DNA of 49,889 bases from Rariglobus sp. GTDB lineage: Bacteria > Verrucomicrobiota > Verrucomicrobiia > Opitutales > Opitutaceae. Under the pieces are notes generated by a model. It was given only the letters and a program-made list of their open reading frames with translations. It ran no database searches and was not told the DNA's origin. Position numbers and translations under genes: made by a program. Every line of letters begins with the position of its first letter. Position 1 is the first letter of the stretch. The stretch is taken from the NCBI GenBank assembly GCA_029266495.1, contig JAQSWS010000016.1:1-49889 (forward strand). Direction: 5' to 3'. Of the stretch, positions 4,805-49,889 are shown piece after piece.

Positions 4805-5455
4805 ATGTCTGAAACAACCACTTCACTGGCAATCCGCGATAAATCCGAAGCCTGCGCCCTGGCGTGGCTCACCTTTCGAAAGCCTGTCGACCTCGTTTGG
4901 GATCCCGTCGAATTCAAGCGCCGCAAAGAACAGACCAACCGTAAATACCCCCGTGTCGTTTTCGACGCGGCCCGCGCTCCCGAGGATGAAGCGGTGGACG
5001 CCCTGTATCGGGTGGAGCTGGGTATTTACCTCGGCACCTCGGCCGACGAAGTCGTGACGGGTAGCACGCCCCAGGTTGCGCACACCCAGCGCTCCGGTTG
5101 GATTGCCGAAAGTTTCGGCTACGGCTATAAAAAAGCCTTCGTTCACTTCTGCACGCTTTCACTTACCGATTTTGTTTCCGCTCCCGATATCGCTGCCGGC
5201 ATGATCTACGAGATCGTCACCATCGGGACCACCGACTTCACTGCGATCGGCGCGGCCGCCAACACGGTCGGGACGATCTTCACCGCAACGGCGACAGGGC
5301 AGGGGACCGGCACGGTGAAGCGCGGCAACCCCGTCCCCGTCCCGGGCATCGCCGTTTATGATCTCTTCGTGGAAGAAGAGATTGGCGAGCAGACGGAGCG
5401 CAACTGGTTCGACCAGTTCACCTACAGCGTCGTCGCAGCCTTGCGTGACGAGTGA
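4805..5455 (+). CDS. Phage tail-joining protein with inserted TDFTAIGA domain
   Basis: 216 residues. Residues 1-125 and 172-216 look like one structural protein; the latter part ends with an acidic and aromatic strand (YDLFVEEEIGEQTERNWFDQF). Residues 131-171 are a self-contained insertion, YEIVTIGTTDFTAIGA then N-T-V-G-T-I-F-T-A-T and GQGTGTV, a module I recognise from many unrelated phage structural proteins. The position, before the probable tail-tube gene, suggests a tail terminator or completion protein. The module's function is not known to me; exposure on the virion surface is plausible. Confidence 0.6.
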   Translation: MSETTTSLAIRDKSEACALAWLTFRKPVDLVWDPVEFKRRKEQTNRKYPRVVFDAARAPEDEAVDALYRVELGIYLGTSADEVVTGSTPQVAHTQRSGWIAESFGYGYKKAFVHFCTLSLTDFVSAPDIAAGMIYEIVTIGTTDFTAIGAAANTVGTIFTATATGQGTGTVKRGNPVPVPGIAVYDLFVEEEIGEQTERNWFDQFTYSVVAALRDE

Positions 5456-41942: not shown

Positions 41943-42428
41943 TCAGCCGCGGCGGGCGGCTTCGATTTTGGCGATGTCGATTTTGCCCATCTCCATCATC
42001 GCTTCGAAGGCGCGTTTGGCTTCCGCACCTCCTGCGGCCATGGCCTCGGTGAGGGTGCGCGGGGTGATCTGCCAGTTGAGGCCCCACTTGTCTTTGCACC
42101 AGCCGCAGGCGCTTTCCTGTCCGCCGTTGCCGACGATGGCGTTCCAATAGCGGTCGGTTTCCTCCTGGGTGTCCGTCGCGATTTGGAAGGAGAAGGCTTC
42201 GCTGTGCGGGAAGATGGGCCCGCCGTTGAGGCCGATGCAGGGAATGCCGAGCACGGTGAATTCGACGGTGAGGACGTCACCCGCCTTGCCCGAGGGATAG
42301 TCGCTCGGGGCCTTGTGCACGCCGGTCACTTTGCTGTCGGGAAAGGTCGCCGCGTAAAACCGCGCGGCCGCTTCGGCGTCTTTGTCGAACCAGAGGCAGA
42401 TTGTGTTTTTGGGAATGGGTTTGTTCAT
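41943..42428 (-). CDS. VOC-superfamily (PhnB-like) protein
   Basis: 161 residues from ATG 42428. ICLWFDKDAEAAARFYAATF, DVLTVEFTVLGIPCIGLNGG and CGWCKDKWGLNWQITPRTL are typical of the PhnB-like '3-demethylubiquinone-9 3-methyltransferase' domain. The usual metal-ligand positions of glyoxalases are not all evident, so it need not be an enzyme. The end (KIDIAKIEAARRG) is also common to this family. It borders a MITE-like element. Confidence 0.85.
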   Translation of the reverse strand: MNKPIPKNTICLWFDKDAEAAARFYAATFPDSKVTGVHKAPSDYPSGKAGDVLTVEFTVLGIPCIGLNGGPIFPHSEAFSFQIATDTQEETDRYWNAIVGNGGQESACGWCKDKWGLNWQITPRTLTEAMAAGGAEAKRAFEAMMEMGKIDIAKIEAARRG

Positions 42429-42509
42429 CGGAATACAACGAACGAGACAGGCGATCTCGGACAGGGTTCGCGCGGGGTTTTAACCACTGATGACGGAGGG
42501 GAACTTTAA

Positions 42510-42544
42510 AGTAGCGAGTAGCGGGTAGTGAGTAACGAGTAGAT
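42510..42544. repeat. Heptanucleotide repeat (family AGTAGCG)
   Basis: Five tandem units AGTAGCG AGTAGCG / GGTAGTG AGTAACG / AGTAGAT in the intergenic region upstream of the VOC gene: a third heptad family in this window. Confidence 0.8.
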
Positions 42545-42567
42545 GGATGGCTTGAGCCAAGTTCGTA

Positions 42568-42870
42568 GGGACTTCAGTCGGCATTAAAAACGTTCAAGTA
42601 AACCGAGCGCAGACTTAAGTCGGGAGAGCATCGGCTTAAGGCGGAGCTGCCGGGACTGAAGTCCGGAGAGGAAAGACTTGAGCCCATTTAACAGGGACTT
42701 GAGGCGGTATTAAAAACGTTCAAGGGAATGGAGGAGCGGCTTAAGTCGGGGGAGCGTTTGCTTAAGGAGAAGTCCCCGGCACTTGAGTGCGGAGAGCAAG
42801 CACTTGAATGATTTTAATGGGGACTTAAGCCGGTATGAACTGGGTTCAAGTCAATGGAGGGTTGGATTCA
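42568..42870. repeat. 126-bp tandem repeat built of 21-bp subunits
   Basis: The sequence at 42568 (GGGACTTCAGTCGG), at 42694 (GGGACTTGAGGCGG) and at 42820 (GGGACTTAAGCCGG) begins successive copies exactly 126 bases apart, about 2.4 copies. The first two copies also share GTATTAAAAACGTTCAAG-like sequence after it, and each copy divides into six 21-base subunits centred on CTTAAG, CTTGAG or TTCAAG. Translated in one frame these give heptapeptides such as LKSGEER and LKSGEHR, with stops once per copy. No matching gene is recognised. Confidence 0.8.
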
Positions 42871-43131
42871 ACTCATCTTGTTCGGGCTCCGGCGGCGGTC
42901 GCCGCGCTCAAGACCGCGCGCGACGAGTATCTGGCCGTGCAGACCGCGCAATCGGGCGACCAGTCGGGCGCGACCACGAGCCGCAGTCAGTTGGAGGCAA
43001 AGGTGAAGGAAGTGACCGAGAAACGCCGCCAGCTCCAATACGCCGCCGACGCCACCTGGCCGGCGACGAAGAAGGTCAACGCGGGCGTGCGCACGGAGTT
43101 CAAGATCCCGCCCAACCGCGCGCTTAAGTAA
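42835..43131 (+). pseudogene. C-terminal remnant or small gene with coiled coil
   Basis: 98 residues if started at ATG 42835, which lies inside the 21-bp repeat, so the N-terminus is doubtful. The real body begins at about residue 15 (RAPAAVAALKTARDEYLAV) and is a coiled coil with SRSQLEAKVKEVTEKRRQLQYAADATWPATK and end VNAGVRTEFKIPPNRALK. It looks like the end of a longer protein whose start was replaced by repeat sequence; equally it may be a small intact gene with an upstream start lost. A terminator follows. Confidence 0.5.
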
Positions 43132-43151
43132 GCGGGAATCCGAATAAAATC

Positions 43152-43202
43152 ACGCCCGTGGGTGCAGGTAGGTTAAGCCTGCCAGTGCTCACGGGCGTTT
43201 TT
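43152..43202 (+). terminator. Terminator before the Gabija-like pair
   Basis: ACGCCCGTG (43152-43160) and CACGGGCGT (43190-43198) form a 9-bp stem with an inner GCAGG/CCTGC stem and a T5 tail. Confidence 0.8.
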
Positions 43203-43376
43203 GTGAATGGGTGAATGGCGGATGCCGCCGTGGACCGAACCTTCGTTCCTGATGAAATCTCTGCTTCCTTATCCAAAATCCATCGCACTGCTTCCTATCG
43301 GATCGCTAAAGGCCAAATGCTTGATCTAGTGGCGCCTGTGCATCCCCAGCACGTCTAACCCCTTCTGCTGATCCGC

Positions 43377-45104
43377 ATGCAAATTCGTCAACTCACAGTC
43401 GCAAACTTTAGAGGAATCGCCTCCCTGAATTGGAAGCCAGGTCTTTCATTTTGCTGCCTAATTGGAGCGGGGGATTCGGGCAAATCCACTGTTCTTGATG
43501 CCGTTGAAGCTGCGTTGTCATCACGTTGGTTTTCTTTCACCGAGCCTGACTTCCTTGGCTGCGATACCACTAACTCCATCGTTATCGAGGTTACTATAGG
43601 TGAGCTCTCGAAAGCTTTGAAGTCCGATGAGCGCATGGGTCTTTATGTTCGTGGATGGACGGTAGCGGGCGAATTGCGCGATGAACCCGAAGATAACGAC
43701 GAACCAGTGCTCACTGTCCGGCTCACCGTTGACGCCACGATGGAGCCAGTTTGGGAGTTGGTGTGCGACCGAGTGGACGATCCACGCACTATGTCGAACC
43801 GAGATCGCGCCCTCTTTGGTCTTGTGCGGTTGGCAGGTGAGGATGCACGACACCTAGCGTGGGGCCAAGGCTCTGTCCTCTCTCGACTGACCGGCGACAA
43901 CACGGAGGCAACCGCGCGACTTGCCGAAGCCTATCGAGCCGCTCGGGCAAGCGCCAAACTCGACGAGATTGAATCATTGTCTAATGCCGCCGATCTTGCA
44001 GAGGGTTACGCAAAGGGACTGGGAGCATATGTTGAAGGTGCTTACGAGCCGGGTTTGGAGCTTGGCCGCTCGGGACTGTCTTCGGGCTCTATTGCTTTGC
44101 ATGACAATGGCGTGCCGTTGCGACTGGCCGGTTTAGGCACACGTAGACTCGCGACACTGGCTATTCAAAAATCGGCCATTGCTGAGGGCGCGATCGTGTT
44201 GGTCGATGAAATTGAGCATGGGCTGGAACCTCATCGTATCATCGGTGCAATCGCGCAGCTCAAAGCTGGTCAGAATCAAGCAGCCGCAGAGCAAAAGCCG
44301 GTAGGGCAAATCCTGATGACTACGCATTCGGATGTCGCACTTGGTGAAGCTGGTGCCGATTGCCTTCATGTGGTCAAAGTCATCCGCCCAAGCCGCGAGA
44401 TGACTATCGCACGTCCCGCCTCAATCGAGGAAATACGCGTTTTGATGCGCTTTACCCCTCGAGCGTTGTTTGCCCGTCGTATACTTGTGACCGAGGGCAA
44501 CACTGAAGTCGGTATGCTGCTGGGCCTACGAGAGAATTGGCCGCCCCGGCATGGTAACAAACCCATTGAGCAATTGGGGGTGGCGATCGCTGACGGCAAC
44601 GGCGCGCAGGCGTGTGCCATGGCGCTGACTCTGTCCGGTCTAGGATATTTAACGGCTATATATCGCGATTCCGACGACGCACTTTCAGTCGAAAATCTGG
44701 CGGCACTTCTTGCAGCTGGCATTCCGGTTTTTGAATACGGAGGAGGGCTCAATATCGAACAAGCCATCTTCTCGATCGCTTCTGATGAGCTTGTTCAAGA
44801 ATTGCTGGTGTATGCGCGGGCTGAACGCGGCGTTGAAGCCATCGACAACAATCTCGCCATCAAGATACCCGACCTGACTATCGATAATATCCAAGGCGAT
44901 TTCATCGCTTGGGAGATACTAGGCGCGTTAAATGGTCAGCAACTTCGCGAGGCCATTGCGGAGTTGGCGGTTCGCAAAAAGTGGTTCAAAGACCAGCGTA
45001 TTGGCCGAGGTCTGGCTCCGTTTGTGTGGCGCATCGTTACCGCTACTCCTACGTCACCTCTTGCCACCGCACTCAACCAAGCCGAGCAATGGCTTTATGC
45101 CTGA
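43377..45104 (+). CDS. gajA: Gabija GajA-like OLD-family ATPase/TOPRIM nuclease
   Basis: 575 residues (GajA is 578). N-terminal ABC-type ATPase: Walker A GAGDSGKST (30-38), Walker B IVLVDEIE (D277, E278), and a switch TTHSDVALG. A C-terminal TOPRIM domain follows, with E373 in VTEGNTEVG, D406 in IADGNGA and D431/D433 in YRDSDD, so both active sites look intact. GajA is a DNA endonuclease that recognises phage DNA and is inhibited by nucleotides. The downstream gene overlaps by eight bases and codes for a UvrD-like helicase, as in Gabija systems. Base composition appears lower in GC than the neighbours, which fits recent transfer. Confidence 0.87.
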   Translation: MQIRQLTVANFRGIASLNWKPGLSFCCLIGAGDSGKSTVLDAVEAALSSRWFSFTEPDFLGCDTTNSIVIEVTIGELSKALKSDERMGLYVRGWTVAGELRDEPEDNDEPVLTVRLTVDATMEPVWELVCDRVDDPRTMSNRDRALFGLVRLAGEDARHLAWGQGSVLSRLTGDNTEATARLAEAYRAARASAKLDEIESLSNAADLAEGYAKGLGAYVEGAYEPGLELGRSGLSSGSIALHDNGVPLRLAGLGTRRLATLAIQKSAIAEGAIVLVDEIEHGLEPHRIIGAIAQLKAGQNQAAAEQKPVGQILMTTHSDVALGEAGADCLHVVKVIRPSREMTIARPASIEEIRVLMRFTPRALFARRILVTEGNTEVGMLLGLRENWPPRHGNKPIEQLGVAIADGNGAQACAMALTLSGLGYLTAIYRDSDDALSVENLAALLAAGIPVFEYGGGLNIEQAIFSIASDELVQELLVYARAERGVEAIDNNLAIKIPDLTIDNIQGDFIAWEILGALNGQQLREAIAELAVRKKWFKDQRIGRGLAPFVWRIVTATPTSPLATALNQAEQWLYA

Positions 45105-46491
45105 AGCCGCAGACCTTTTTGCTCTGGGCAATGCAGCCGTTGTGGCTCCAGCGGGTCACGGAAAAACCGAGATCATTGCTAAAGTTGCTGCGCTAGGACA
45201 CCGAGCATTGATCCTGACACACACGCATGCGGGCGTTCACGCCATTCGTGCGCGGCTAAAGCGTTTGGGCGTGCCTCATGCGCGGGCCTCCGTCGACACC
45301 ATTGCCGGGTGGTCCATGCGATACGCGCATGCTTTTCCGGGTGTTGCCCAACCCCCTAAAGGCACGCCGCAAGGTGCGCAGTGGGATCAGCTTTATCGAG
45401 GCGCAACGCTGGCGCTCGGAGTCAAAGCAGTCCGAGAAGTAGTTGCTGCTTCTTATGACCGTATCCTGATCGATGAGTATCAAGATTGCGGGGGGCTTCA
45501 ACACGAGCTTGCCGTCGCGCTCTCTGCTATCGTGCCGACATTGATTTTCGGTGACTCGATGCAAGGGATCTTTGAATTTGCTGGAGCAACATTAAGTTGG
45601 GACCACCAAATCCACGTCCGCTTCCCATTTGCTGGAACGCTTGCGACACCGCATCGCTGGGCAGGCAAGAATCCCGGACTCGGGCAATGGGTTGCGGAAA
45701 CGCGCGAAAAGCTCATGCGAGGCGAAGACATCGATCTGGTTGATCCAAGAATTACCTATCGCGAATCAACTAATGCCTTCGACATGGAAACCTTGTTTGA
45801 AGGCATTGACGGCAAAGAGGGCAGTTTCGCGGCCATACATTGCCACAAAAGTATCTGCTATAGCCTAGCAAAGGCGGCCCGCGGGGGATACCAAGCTATT
45901 GAGGAAATCGCAGCCAACCGGCTTCGCGAGTTTGCTACAACTTGGGACCAAGCGACTGACGCCCAAGGCAGATTCGATACGATTACCAAGCTGGTCGACG
46001 ACTGCTTCCACAAAAAAAAGTTTGTCGAAGGTGAAGCTATCGATCCTGAAGACGCGTCTATCGTGGCAGCACTTCGAAAATTAATACCCGGTCTTTCCAT
46101 TGGAAACGGTGCCGAAGCCGCCGTTCATTTTATTGCAATGTCTCGCAAGCGTCCAAACTGGAAATTATTTCGTAGCGAGTTATGGCGAGACGTGGAGCGT
46201 GCAGCAATTGAGGTTGCTGCAGGGCGTGCGGAAAACATGGAAATTGCAGCCGGCAGCGTGAGACAGCGGGTCAGCAACTCAGGTCGCAAGCTTCCCAAGC
46301 GGACCGTGTCTACGCCGCTTCTGTTAAAGGGACTGGAATTCGACCATGTAGTCATTCCAGACGCGACCCACTTCGCCAATGAACGGCTAGCCCAAGCCAA
46401 ACTGTTTTATGTAGCGATCTCGCGCGCCACTCGATCGCTTACGATATCGTCTTCTCAGCGTATCCTACGGTTTCCCATCCCCAACGCATAA
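45097..46491 (+). CDS. gajB: Gabija GajB-like UvrD-family helicase
   Basis: 464 residues from ATG 45097, overlapping GajA's end; longer open frames start inside GajA. Walker A APAGHGKTE (18-26), Walker B RILIDEYQDC (122-131), the motif-III-like FGDSMQGIFEF, motif V STPLLLKGLEFDHVVIPDA and motif VI KLFYVAISRATRSLTI show an SF1A helicase. GajB is about 494 residues in the described system and binds GajA to form the active complex. The ATPase or helicase acts after nicking; how is not fully known. Confidence in Gabija type is high because of order and motifs together. Confidence 0.87.
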   Translation: MPEAADLFALGNAAVVAPAGHGKTEIIAKVAALGHRALILTHTHAGVHAIRARLKRLGVPHARASVDTIAGWSMRYAHAFPGVAQPPKGTPQGAQWDQLYRGATLALGVKAVREVVAASYDRILIDEYQDCGGLQHELAVALSAIVPTLIFGDSMQGIFEFAGATLSWDHQIHVRFPFAGTLATPHRWAGKNPGLGQWVAETREKLMRGEDIDLVDPRITYRESTNAFDMETLFEGIDGKEGSFAAIHCHKSICYSLAKAARGGYQAIEEIAANRLREFATTWDQATDAQGRFDTITKLVDDCFHKKKFVEGEAIDPEDASIVAALRKLIPGLSIGNGAEAAVHFIAMSRKRPNWKLFRSELWRDVERAAIEVAAGRAENMEIAAGSVRQRVSNSGRKLPKRTVSTPLLLKGLEFDHVVIPDATHFANERLAQAKLFYVAISRATRSLTISSSQRILRFPIPNA

Positions 46492-46501
46492 GTGATCGCG
46501 A

Positions 46502-47320
46502 TTAAAAAGGCGGCCAACTTTTCCAGAAGAGAGGAAAAGATGCGTTATATGTATGGCTGTGCGCGTAATGATAAGCGACTTTGTAGCCATGACTTGATGC
46601 CGATTTTCGAGCAATTAAATCTTGTAACGAGCTGCTAATATGCCCCGGCAGGATATCGCGATACGCCAAATGAGGATCGGCATCACAGCGTCCACAAGTA
46701 TCAAGGAAGGAGGCCGCAGAGCGAAGCTCACTCGCGATATAATCGTAGCCGGCGCTATGCTCGGAGATATGACTGAGAATATACTCACGGGCTTCGTTGA
46801 ATCTTTTTTCCCCCACGGCTAGGCGCTCCGCCCACTTATCGAGCTCTTTTACTCCCGCTTCATTGACTGCAATCTCACGCGAAAAGGTTTCCGGAGAACT
46901 GGGTCTTGCAGAAATGGCCAAGGCTGAAGACACCCAGACAGGAATATCCTCATACAAATTGCTCCACGTCTGCCTGCCCAGCGAGTCAAAGATCAAATTG
47001 GAAGCAGCAGCGAGATGGGCCGTGAGTGCTTCGCTTCGATATCCGTCGGTGGGCACCGGATTAACAGGCATCTCTACGCGTATCCAGATTCCAAACTCCT
47101 GTTTGCGCCACTTCAGGATAGCCGGGCAGAATAAATGAATCCTTCCATATTGGTGCCAGCTATAGACAGGCACGTCCTTTGTTATCCAGCGCTTGCCGCG
47201 CCGCACACGTTCTGTGTGAAAAGTTTCAAAGCGTTTTTGTGTAGATTCATCAGTCCGTAGCTCAACCACGACTTTTGCACTCACAGATTGCTCGCCAGAT
47301 TTAGCTGTGGACTCACTCAT
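46502..47320 (-). CDS. Hypothetical protein next to the Gabija-like pair
   Basis: 272 residues from ATG 47320. No domain recognised. The N-terminus (ESTAKSGEQSVSAKVVVELRTD) is followed by mixed beta strands (RWITKDVPVYSWHQYGRIHLF), and the second half is helical with a Cys pair and His (SFLDTCGRCDADPHLAYRD), which could bind metal, and an unusual end (HYAHSHTYNASFPLFWKSWPPF). The codon use and base composition match the Gabija genes rather than mutS. It is convergent to gajB with 10 bases between and follows mutS by 31 bases. It may be an accessory defence gene, or unrelated. Confidence 0.6.
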   Translation of the reverse strand: MSESTAKSGEQSVSAKVVVELRTDESTQKRFETFHTERVRRGKRWITKDVPVYSWHQYGRIHLFCPAILKWRKQEFGIWIRVEMPVNPVPTDGYRSEALTAHLAAASNLIFDSLGRQTWSNLYEDIPVWVSSALAISARPSSPETFSREIAVNEAGVKELDKWAERLAVGEKRFNEAREYILSHISEHSAGYDYIASELRSAASFLDTCGRCDADPHLAYRDILPGHISSSLQDLIARKSASSHGYKVAYHYAHSHTYNASFPLFWKSWPPF

Positions 47321-47351
47321 TGGATTTCAAGGGGCATATGAGCTGGTTTTA

Positions 47352-49889
47352 CTACAGTAGGCTGAGCTGGGCGTCGTCGGAGTCGGCGACGGTGATTTTT
47401 TTCTTGGGTTTGGCTTTGGGGGCGCTCGTGGCGGTCGCGGGGAGTTCGACGCTGGTGTCGTCGGATTCGAGTTTTTGCAGGATTACTTTGGCGCGGTCGA
47501 TCACGGTGATGGGCAGGCCGGCTAGGCGGGCCACTTGAATGCCGTAGCTGCGGTCGGCGGCGCCGGGGATCACGCGGCGGACGAAGACGATTTCGTCGTT
47601 CCACTCTTTCACCGCCACGGAAAAATTGCGGAGGCGGGCGAGGTGTTTTTCGAGTTGGGTCAGCTCTTGGTAATGCGTCGCGAAGAGCGTGCGGGGGCCG
47701 CGTTCGGTGTCGCGGTGCAGGTGCTCGACCACCGCCCAGGCGATGGAGAGGCCGTCGTAGGTCGAGGTGCCGCGGCCGATCTCGTCCAGGATGATGAGGG
47801 AGCGGTCGGTGGCGTTGTTGAGGATGTTGGCGGTTTCGTTCATCTCGACCATGAAGGTCGAGTTGCCGCGGGCGAGGTCGTCGCTGGCGCCGACGCGGGA
47901 GAAGATGCGGTCCACGAGGCCGACGCGGCAGGTCTTGGCGGGGGTCCAGCAGCCGACTTGGGCGAGGAGGGTGATGAGCGCGACCTGGCGGATGTAGGTC
48001 GATTTACCGGCCATGTTGGGGCCGGTGATGAGCGCGAGTTGGGCGTCGGTCGAGGAGAGGAGGGTGTCGTTGGGGACGAAGCTCGTGGTGCCGCGGCCAG
48101 CGGCGACGGCGGGATCTTTGAGCATCTGCTCCACGACGGGGTGGCGGCCTTCGATGATTTCGAGGGTGTCGCCTTCGTCGAGGGCGGGTTGGCAGTAGTC
48201 CCACTCGCGGGCGAGGACGGACCAGCCGGCGAGGACGTCGAGTTCGGCGAGGGTGTCGGCGGTTTTGGAGAGGGCGATGGATTCGTCGAGGACGGCGGCG
48301 ACGAGGGCGGCGAAGAGGGCTTGCTCGCGGGCGAGGGCGTTTTCCTCGGCGTGGAAGATTTCCTTTTCCTTGGTGCGGAGATCTTCGGTGACGTAGCGCT
48401 CGCCGTTCACGGTGGTCTGGCGGCGGATGTAGTCGGGCGGGACGAGGTGGAGGTTGGCCTTGGTGATCTCGATGTAGTAGCCGAAATTGTTCGTGAATTT
48501 GATCTTCAGGCTGCGGATGCCGGTGCGCTCCTGTTCGCCGCGTTCGAGGTCGGAGAGCCAGGTTTTGTTGTCGGTCGTGAGCGAGCGGAGGCGGTCGAGC
48601 TCGGGGCAGTGGCCGGCGCGGATGTAGTTGCCGTCGGCGAGGTCGTTCGGGAGGGCGTCGGCGAGGGCGGAGGAGAGGAGCTGCAGGAGGGAAGGCAGCT
48701 CCTCTAGTTGAGAGTTGAGAGATGAGAGTTGAGAGTTCGGACCGAAGGCACTGAGGGTGGCGCGGATCGCGGGGAGCTGGCTGAGGGTGTCGCGGATGCC
48801 GCCGAGTTCGCGGGGGTTGCGGAGGCGGTTTTGGAGGCGGCCGAGGATGCGCGGGATGTCGCGGACGTTATCGAGCCATTCGCGGAGTTCGCCGAGGTGC
48901 ATCGGGTCACCGAGCAGTTCGCCGACGAGGGCGGAGCGGCGCTGGATCTCGGCGAGGTCGAGCGTGGGGGCGGCGAGCCAGCGTTCCAAGAGGCGGGCGC
49001 CGGCGGCGGTGCCGGTGCGGTTGATGGCGGAGAGGAGCGAGCCGTCGCGGGTGCCGCGGGAGGATTGGAAGATCTCGAGGTTGCGGAGGGTGGCGGGGTC
49101 GAGGAGGAGCGTGCGGGCGCTGCGGTATTCCTGGAGCGAGCGGAGGTTTTCCGGTTTGGCGCAGAGGTTTTCGGTGGCGTAGTGGACGAGCGCGCCGGCG
49201 GGGCCGAGGGCGGGGTGGTCGTGGGCGAGGCCGAAGCCTTGGAGGTTGAGGACGCCGAGGGTGGTCGTGACGGTGCGGAGGCCTTCGGCGGTTTCGAAGT
49301 GGTAGCCGGGGAGGTCGGTGCAGAGGCGCGGCTCGCAAAAGGCGTGGAGCGCGTGGACGGCGGTCTGGTCGTGCGGGGCGGTTTTCCAGCGCTCGAGGTC
49401 GCCTTCGATGACGATCAACTCGGCGGGGTCGAGGGCGGTGAGGACGGGGAGGAGATTTTCGGGGCGGGCGTCAGTGGCGACGCGGAATTCGCCGGTGGAG
49501 AGGTCGAGCCAGGCGGCGTGGAGGCCGGCTTTGTCGAGCGTGAGGGCGCAGAGGTAGTGGTTGCGCTGGGCGTCGAGCTGGTTGGCGGCGAGGGTGGTGC
49601 CGGGGGAGAGAATGCGGGTGACGGCGCGGCGGACGAGTTTGCCGGCTTTGGCGGGCTCGGCCTGGTCGCAGATGGCGATCTTTTTGCCGGCGGCGAGGAG
49701 CTTGGTGATGTAATTGTCGGCCGCGTGGTGGGGGATGCCCGCCATGGGAGTCTCGCCGCGCTTGGTGAGGGTGAGTCCGCAGAGTTTCGACGCGGTGGCG
49801 GCGTCATCATGGAACATCTCGTAGAAGTCACCGAGGCGGAAGAGCAGGATGGTGTCCTTGGGGAGTCCGCGCTTCACCTCGAAGTATTG
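47352..49889 (-). CDS. mutS: DNA mismatch repair protein MutS, N-terminus outside window
   Basis: About 846 residues visible; the frame is open to the window edge (QYFEVKRGLPK). The mismatch-binding Phe-Tyr-Glu is in LGDFYEMF near the visible start, followed by SKLCGLTLTKRGETPMAGIPH. The ATPase has Walker A GPNMAGKST, Walker B LIILDEIGRGTSTYDG, and a final TGA near 47352. In the lever/clamp region an SQLSSLNSQLEEL stretch comes from the CTCAACT-type 7-bp repeat (48706-48740). Central to mutation avoidance, including slippage at short tandem repeats, so its own repeat insertion is of interest. Confidence 0.95.
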   Translation of the reverse strand, partial: QYFEVKRGLPKDTILLFRLGDFYEMFHDDAATASKLCGLTLTKRGETPMAGIPHHAADNYITKLLAAGKKIAICDQAEPAKAGKLVRRAVTRILSPGTTLAANQLDAQRNHYLCALTLDKAGLHAAWLDLSTGEFRVATDARPENLLPVLTALDPAELIVIEGDLERWKTAPHDQTAVHALHAFCEPRLCTDLPGYHFETAEGLRTVTTTLGVLNLQGFGLAHDHPALGPAGALVHYATENLCAKPENLRSLQEYRSARTLLLDPATLRNLEIFQSSRGTRDGSLLSAINRTGTAAGARLLERWLAAPTLDLAEIQRRSALVGELLGDPMHLGELREWLDNVRDIPRILGRLQNRLRNPRELGGIRDTLSQLPAIRATLSAFGPNSQLSSLNSQLEELPSLLQLLSSALADALPNDLADGNYIRAGHCPELDRLRSLTTDNKTWLSDLERGEQERTGIRSLKIKFTNNFGYYIEITKANLHLVPPDYIRRQTTVNGERYVTEDLRTKEKEIFHAEENALAREQALFAALVAAVLDESIALSKTADTLAELDVLAGWSVLAREWDYCQPALDEGDTLEIIEGRHPVVEQMLKDPAVAAGRGTTSFVPNDTLLSSTDAQLALITGPNMAGKSTYIRQVALITLLAQVGCWTPAKTCRVGLVDRIFSRVGASDDLARGNSTFMVEMNETANILNNATDRSLIILDEIGRGTSTYDGLSIAWAVVEHLHRDTERGPRTLFATHYQELTQLEKHLARLRNFSVAVKEWNDEIVFVRRVIPGAADRSYGIQVARLAGLPITVIDRAKVILQKLESDDTSVELPATATSAPKAKPKKKITVADSDDAQLSLL
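48706..48740 (-). repeat. Heptanucleotide repeat (family CTCAACT) inside mutS
   Basis: AGTTGAG AGTTGAG AGATGAG AGTTGAG AGTTCGG on the + strand, that is five units. In the gene they encode NSQLSSLNSQL within the clamp/lever part. Confidence 0.8.

What the first reader, a model, noticed from the sequence alone, without database searches (positions are those of the whole stretch)
43377..47320. Gabija-type defence pair with a possible third gene
The OLD nuclease and UvrD-like helicase match Gabija in size, order and motifs, with an 8-base overlap. The convergent 272-residue gene (46502-47320) has similar base composition and lies between the pair and mutS, so it may have been acquired together and could be an accessory gene with a Cys/His cluster.
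Basis: partly seen in the sequence, partly recalled or inferred. Interest (0 to 1): 0.6.

Follow-up and report, generated by a model that had tools for sequence, protein, structure and literature searches.

The report
Ordinary two-gene Gabija phage-defence pair
A bacterium acquired a standard two-gene anti-phage system (Gabija) from a distant bacterial group, at a chromosomal spot where a sister species carries a different defence gene; the small gene beside it looks like an unrelated orphan.

Summary
The pair is real: gajA 43377-45104, gajB 45097-46491, 8-nt overlap. It matches known Gabija models nearly end to end (PADLOC PDLC04168 E 1.8e-154; PDLC04173 E 5.8e-112). Nuclease and helicase motifs are intact, and the GajA model matches solved GajA and OLD nucleases. 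The 8-nt overlap holds in 34 of 34 measured relatives with GajA 51% identical or more.

The third gene is not supported. No relative of the 272-aa ORF was found in any search made. It is beside none of 80 related genome loci (68 with 1 kb or more read beyond gajB) and none of 6 plasmid-collection loci. No DNA match to relatives passes gajB's stop. The ORF lies 31 nt behind mutS, on mutS's strand: probably an orphan of doubtful function.

The pair came by horizontal transfer: GajA is 81% identical to a betaproteobacterial one, whereas MutS is 81-82% identical to two Opitutae and 39-43% to four betaproteobacteria.

Unexpectedly, the same slot beside mutS holds Avs2 in the sister species, and a methylase plus HNH nuclease lie downstream of mutS in a third species: a likely defence hotspot.

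The parts
43377..45104 (+). gajA: OLD-family ABC-ATPase/TOPRIM nuclease, 575 aa
   Evidence: PADLOC GajA PDLC04168 E 1.8e-154 over 1-574; P-loop GAGDSGKS from G30, VDE at 276-278, TOPRIM E373, E377, D431, D433 and K538, all but V276 and parts of the P-loop invariant in 57 aligned rows; AF2 pLDDT 88.1; matches to solved GajA and TsOLD
45097..46491 (+). gajB: SF1/UvrD-like helicase, 464 aa, start overlaps gajA by 8 nt
   Evidence: PADLOC GajB PDLC04173 E 5.8e-112 over 4-458; motifs GHGKT from 20, DEYQD from 126, GDSMQ from 152, KGLEFDHV from 411, YVAISR from 438; best PDB profile hits are GajB chains; overlap conserved
46502..47320 (-). 272-aa orphan ORF, convergent with gajB (10 nt away), 31 nt behind mutS on the same strand; judged not part of the Gabija system
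   Evidence: no family or homologue found; absent beside gajAB elsewhere
42436..47351 (.). variable slot between a 3-dmu-9_3-mt (VOC-like) gene and mutS; holds Avs2 in the sister species
   Evidence: DNA identity with sister locus L121 ends at 42435 and begins again at 47352; Avs2 E 2.7e-298
47352..49877 (-). mutS, conserved right flank
   Evidence: 96% DNA identity in G045
41943..42428 (-). 3-dmu-9_3-mt (VOC-like) gene, conserved left flank in the sister species
   Evidence: PF06983 E 4.3e-48; 94% DNA and 98% protein identity in L121

Best explanation
A standard two-gene Gabija system. GajA (ABC-ATPase plus TOPRIM nuclease) and GajB (SF1 helicase), probably translationally coupled through an 8-nt gene overlap, most likely form one nuclease-helicase complex that cuts or nicks invading phage DNA. 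The pair entered this lineage by horizontal transfer from a proteobacterial-type source and sits in a slot behind mutS where a sister species carries Avs2. The 272-aa ORF is a separate orphan in or at the edge of the same slot, not a Gabija component. Shown here: gene pair, families, motifs, predicted fold of GajA, conserved overlap, transfer pattern, absence of the ORF in the relatives examined. Inferred from published Gabija work: complex formation, nuclease activity and trigger (nucleotide depletion, or linear DNA not occupied by RecBCD).
For: Near full-length PADLOC GajA/GajB hits; gajB directly downstream on the same strand in 76 of 80 relatives; 8-nt overlap, with the gajB start placed by homology, in 34 of 34 measured loci with GajA 51% identical or more; catalytic positions invariant in 57 rows and E373, E377, D431, D433 aligned with E379, E383, D432, D434 of solved GajA; GajA model matches 8x5i_D, Z 19.1 over 421 residues, and 8sm3_A, Z 18.6 over 404; GajA groups with Pseudomonadota, 98/87 and 100/98, while MutS goes with Opitutae at 81-82%; ORF272 absent from the comparisons.
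Against: No activity can be tested here. Against the PDB the GajA profile scores a stand-alone OLD nuclease (6p74, 6.7e-22) slightly above GajA (1.7e-18), and Foldseek TM-scores to GajA chains are only 0.40-0.50 by the query, so the clade is distant from the Bacillus type. The ORF272 shares the low GC of the pair and lies in the same slot, so joint arrival is not excluded. Empty answers had no positive control in the set searched.
Confidence: 0.87

Rival explanations
1. The 272-aa ORF is an accessory or regulatory Gabija gene (for example a silencer or antitoxin-like partner) acquired with gajAB.
For: Similar low GC and GC3; lies inside the slot bounded by sister synteny; convergent and only 10 nt from gajB.
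Against: Absent beside gajAB in 80 of 80 and 6 of 6 related loci, and no neighbour gene recurs consistently there; not found in the 50 gajAB-bearing genomes searched, of the 80 on hand; no DNA match to relatives passes gajB's stop; it follows mutS on mutS's strand, opposite to gajAB.
Confidence: 0.06
2. The 272-aa ORF is an independent cargo gene of the slot: an unrecognised stand-alone defence, anti-defence or mobile-element gene unrelated to Gabija.
For: The slot carries Avs2 in the sister species, and a methylase plus HNH nuclease lie 2.0-4.3 kb downstream of mutS in G484.
Against: No homologue and no usable fold prediction (pLDDT 39.0); coding signal weak.
Confidence: 0.3
3. The 272-aa ORF is decayed or non-functional sequence, or not translated at all.
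For: No relative found; codon score 0.020 bits per codon; no clear ribosome-binding site to my eye upstream of 47320 (sequence).
Against: ORF length reached in only 2 of 400 simulations of 5 kb; frame best of six.
Confidence: 0.35
4. The pair is another OLD-helicase system, not Gabija (for example a stand-alone OLD nuclease with a chance helicase neighbour, or PARIS).
For: Old (PDLC02358, 1.3e-10) and AriA (2.5e-16) models also hit parts of the protein; TsOLD is the top PDB profile hit.
Against: The GajA model beats those by more than 130 orders of magnitude and covers the protein; the helicase partner is directly downstream in 76 of 80 loci.
Confidence: 0.06

Closest known systems
Gabija (GajAB), PADLOC models PDLC04168 and PDLC04173
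   Same: Gene order, sizes, domain content and motifs; both models match almost end to end
   Different: No difference was found, but the two models are the only members of that subfamily compared directly; the close clade is otherwise mostly proteobacterial here
Gabija of Bacillus cereus VD045 (8sm3, 8jqb; PMC10781630, PMC10822852)
   Same: ABC-ATPase plus TOPRIM with E, DxD; SF1 helicase with Walker A and DExQD; similar lengths; fold match over the whole model
   Different: 13-19% identity in structure alignments with GajA chains; near the second metal site the clade keeps one invariant E461, where VD045 is reported to have D511 and D513 (the correspondence, like K538 with K541, is my inference)
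OLD nuclease of Thermus scotoductus (6p74)
   Same: Same two-domain architecture; Z 20.0 over 409 residues; top PDB profile hit
   Different: Recalled as a stand-alone protein; here a helicase partner is conserved
Avs2 (antiviral STAND)
   Same: Occupies the same chromosomal slot in the sister species
   Different: Unrelated protein; mechanism not compared here

Membership tests
Gabija | gajA followed by gajB as an adjacent pair on one strand | tested here: met
   Window; 76 of 80 genome loci and 6 of 6 plasmid-collection loci
Gabija | GajA: N-terminal ABC-type ATPase plus C-terminal TOPRIM active site (E, G, DxD, K) | tested here: met
   Invariant K36, E278, H317, E373, E377, G401, D431, D433, E461, K538 in 57 rows; E373, E377, D431, D433 align with published E379, E383, D432, D434. 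The matches of G401 and K538 are inferred; the alignment ends before K541
Gabija | GajB: SF1/UvrD-like helicase with Walker A and DExQD | tested here: met
   GHGKT, DEYQD and motifs III, V, VI; UvrD-helicase PF00580 above cut-off
Gabija | Match to Gabija profile models over nearly the whole proteins | tested here: met
   PDLC04168 1.8e-154, residues 1-574; PDLC04173 5.8e-112, residues 4-458
Gabija | Fold of GajA | tested here: met
   Model pLDDT 88.1, pTM 0.82; 8x5i_D Z 19.1 over 421 residues, 8sm3_A Z 18.6 over 404. Not specific to Gabija: TsOLD (409 residues) and retron Eco8 OLD (459 residues, Z 17.9) also match end to end, and SMC/Rad50 heads reach Z 18-20 over the ATPase part
Gabija | GajA4GajB4 complex, DNA nicking or cleavage, anti-phage activity | not testable with these tools
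   Published for B. cereus VD045 (abstracts of PMC10822852, and PMC8136825)
PARIS (AriA/AriB) | AriA-type ATPase with a separate AriB TOPRIM protein (definition recalled) | tested here: not met
   AriA models hit only parts (best 2.5e-16), far below GajA; the TOPRIM lies inside the 575-aa protein (OLD-like TOPRIM at 364-433, 21.7 bits, just under Pfam's 23.2 cut-off; invariant residues)
   The ORF is beside 0 of 80 plus 0 of 6 loci; neighbour clusters are scattered, the largest in 13 of 89 loci and on both sides

The most novel reading that the evidence does not exclude
The 272-aa ORF is a young, fast-evolving or lineage-specific gene with a defence-related role (a Gabija regulator, or a stand-alone defence or anti-defence protein) housed in a mutS-adjacent defence hotspot that swaps Gabija, Avs2 and restriction genes between species of one genus.
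Probability: 0.1. Interest if true: 0.45.

Novelty: new member of a known kind. Interest (0 to 1): 0.2.

Why it matters
It settles that this is a two-gene Gabija and removes a proposed third component. It also shows a betaproteobacterial-type Gabija clade moving across phyla, and marks the side downstream of mutS as a likely defence hotspot in this genus, which can be mined for new systems.

Tried and rejected
Third-gene hypothesis: tested by tblastn of the ORF on the related loci and by phmmer --max of the ORF against 936 neighbour ORFs from 89 loci, the window's own included (best non-self E 1.7), plus clustering of those neighbours; no support. Recurring neighbours do exist in small numbers: the largest cluster touches 13 of 89 loci, on both sides of the pair; I did not identify its family.

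Homologue hunt for the ORF: four profile libraries, nothing at E 1; PDB sequences, only 2lj4 at E 0.037 and 5lnk at E 1.2; plasmids and phages, nothing at E 1; 240 phylum genomes, self plus one 24% match at E 0.005 inside a 1323-aa frame; genome contigs and viral contigs by exact-peptide patterns, which reach close relatives only (31 and 3 pattern matches, none confirmed); 250 family genomes, self plus one 26% match at E 0.006 with a stop inside; 50 genomes with gajAB relatives, given 50 of the 80 loci, and 369 genomes of the class of G602, both empty. The tool warns that the last two had no positive control. The weak matches were judged chance. The samples are a part of what exists, so an unseen relative is possible. 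A fold of the ORF without alignment failed (pLDDT 39.0) and was not searched.

Stand-alone OLD and PARIS were considered and rejected. No phage record matches the GajA at E 1e-5. In 387 genomes of the window's phylum only the window and one 36% partial match reach E 1e-30. No direct or inverted repeat of 9 to 14 bases links the two slot edges tested, 42380-42560 and 47200-47420, and none of the slot's ORFs looked like an integrase, so the mode of insertion is unknown. Promoter and terminator scans gave no clear excess over shuffles (3 against 2.8; 8 against 6.1).

Literature: 'Gabija'+'third gene'+'GajA' gave 0 papers; 'mutS', 'antiphage', 'insertion hotspot', 'Verrucomicrobia', at least 3 of 4, gave 0; other searches are. 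They cover one open-access library only.
Full report
Observation. gajA is 43377-45104 and gajB 45097-46491, overlapping by 8 nt. The 272-aa ORF is 46502-47320 on the other strand, 10 nt from gajB's stop. All three have lower GC and GC3 than the neighbouring mutS and VOC-like genes.

Identity of the pair. PADLOC's GajA model PDLC04168 covers residues 1-574 (E 1.8e-154) and its GajB model PDLC04173 covers 4-458 (E 5.8e-112). Pfam sees AAA_21, AAA_15, an OLD-like TOPRIM just below its cut-off, UvrD-helicase and UvrD_C_2. I aligned 57 GajA sequences: the window and 56 of the 76 loci with a clean near full-length ORF. K36, E278, H317 and TOPRIM E373, E377, G401, D431, D433, E461, K538 are invariant. 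The profile aligns E373, E377, D431 and D433 with E379, E383, D432 and D434 of solved GajA (roles as given in passages of PMC10781630, and section 9 of PMC10822852). GajB keeps SF1 motifs I, II, III, V and VI, and the best PDB hits of its profile are GajB chains. The AlphaFold2 model of GajA (pLDDT 88.1) matches solved GajA and TsOLD from end to end at similar Z (19.1 and 20.0). Foldseek TM-scores to GajA chains are 0.40-0.50 by the query, the retron Eco8 OLD protein matches about as well, and the ATPase part resembles SMC and Rad50 heads, so the fold shows the OLD family rather than Gabija alone. The clade is Gabija by gene pair and profile, but distant from the Bacillus type in sequence.

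Conservation of the pair. gajB follows directly on the same strand in 76 of 80. The four exceptions are L036 (a gajB piece upstream of gajA), L044 (no gajB match), L050 (gajA in two pieces more than 6 kb apart, gajB behind the second) and L088 (a gajB match further on that fails my distance rule because it begins at residue 53). In 34 of 34 measured loci with GajA 51% identical or more the gajA-gajB overlap is exactly 8 nt, taking the gajB start by homology; at 32-39% identity it varies. The plasmid collection has 302 records with a GajA match; I opened six loci, five from the GajA list and one from the GajB list, and all six have the pair. The phage collection has none at E 1e-5. Passages of PMC13304284 report the same compact or overlapping gajA-gajB layout in lactic acid bacteria.

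The third gene. The ORF is beside none of the 80 loci (68 with at least 1 kb read beyond gajB) and none of the six, even at tblastn E 1. phmmer without filters against 936 neighbour ORFs gives no relative (best non-self E 1.7). Neighbour clusters are scattered, the largest in 13 of 89 loci and lying on either side, so I see no consistent third component. No DNA match to the relatives passes gajB's stop at 46491. The ORF has no credible homologue in the other searches, which sample only part of known genomes. Its frame is probably coding, but the statistics are modest. I conclude that it is not a Gabija gene. Whether it is a working gene at all is open.

Origin. The window's GajA groups with Betaproteobacteria and other Pseudomonadota (98/87 for a set of 4 rows, 100/98 for 8 rows; the nearest, L011, is 81% identical, though the fork with it alone is weak at 96/45), far from the Opitutus GajA L056 at 36%. 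MutS shows the opposite: 82% and 81% with the genomes of L056 and L057 (titled Opitutus and Opitutae) and 39-43% with the four betaproteobacterial genomes searched. The host is thus an Opitutae-type bacterium (my inference; the tools leave it unnamed), and gajAB came by horizontal transfer.

The slot. In the sister species G045 (mutS 96% identical), DNA identity with the window stops at 42435 and resumes at 47352. In between, G045 has one long ORF of 1455 aa that is Avs2 (PDLC02164, E 2.7e-298). mutS was found in 11 of 13 genus genomes, the window's included. Besides the window I read DNA downstream of mutS in G045 and eight others; G470's contig ends at mutS and was not fetched. G484 has a C5 methylase and an HNH nuclease 2.0-4.3 kb downstream. 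G528 has a HepT-like protein 147 nt downstream and a PIN-domain gene about 2.9 kb downstream, neither of which PADLOC names. G514 has phosphoglucose isomerase, G500 a DUF3108 gene, and G454 a TPR ORF before its contig ends. G540, G551 and G569 offer only 0.3-1.7 kb and their ORFs were not scanned. So PADLOC-recognised defence genes follow mutS in 3 of 10 genomes (window, G045, G484). The strict slot with the VOC-like neighbour is shared by two. The hotspot is a reasonable inference, not a statistic.

Mechanism. Published work describes GajA as a nucleotide-sensitive nicking endonuclease (PMC8136825, abstract seen) and GajAB as a 4:4 complex activated by nucleotide depletion (PMC10822852, abstract and sections 8, 9 and 11 seen). 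A 2025 preprint instead argues that Gabija blocks circularisation of linear phage DNA not occupied by RecBCD (PMC12407980, abstract and discussion seen). The sequence here supports an intact nuclease-helicase machine but cannot choose between these triggers.

Noticed in passing
L121:3748-8115 (-), sister genome G045: Avs2 gene between mutS and the VOC-like gene, in the slot where the window has gajAB and the orphan ORF.
   Followed up: yes
L153:834-3118 (G484) and L152:2097-2513, 4826-5248 (G528): C5 methylase plus HNH nuclease, and a HepT-like gene plus a PIN-domain gene, downstream of mutS in other species of the genus.
   Followed up: partly
window 42486-42551: A short repeat that matches at least 39 other places in the same genome, at 79-100% identity.
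   Followed up: no
window 42541-42792: Two tandem copies of a 126-nt unit, 73% identical, in the left part of the slot.
   Followed up: no
window 42835-43207: A 98-aa ORF with host-like GC3 and an inverted repeat behind it; 42994-43207 matches G045 at another place (71% DNA over 215 columns), and the ORF was found in only 2 of 80 family genomes, its own included.
   Followed up: partly
L036, L044, L050: Relatives where gajAB looks rearranged, lacks gajB, or is split more than 6 kb apart.
   Followed up: no
window 43377-45104, residue E461: This GajA clade keeps a single invariant E near the second metal site, where B. cereus GajA is reported to have D511 and D513; it may resemble OLD_Bp (T506, E508) there (correspondence inferred).
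   Followed up: no
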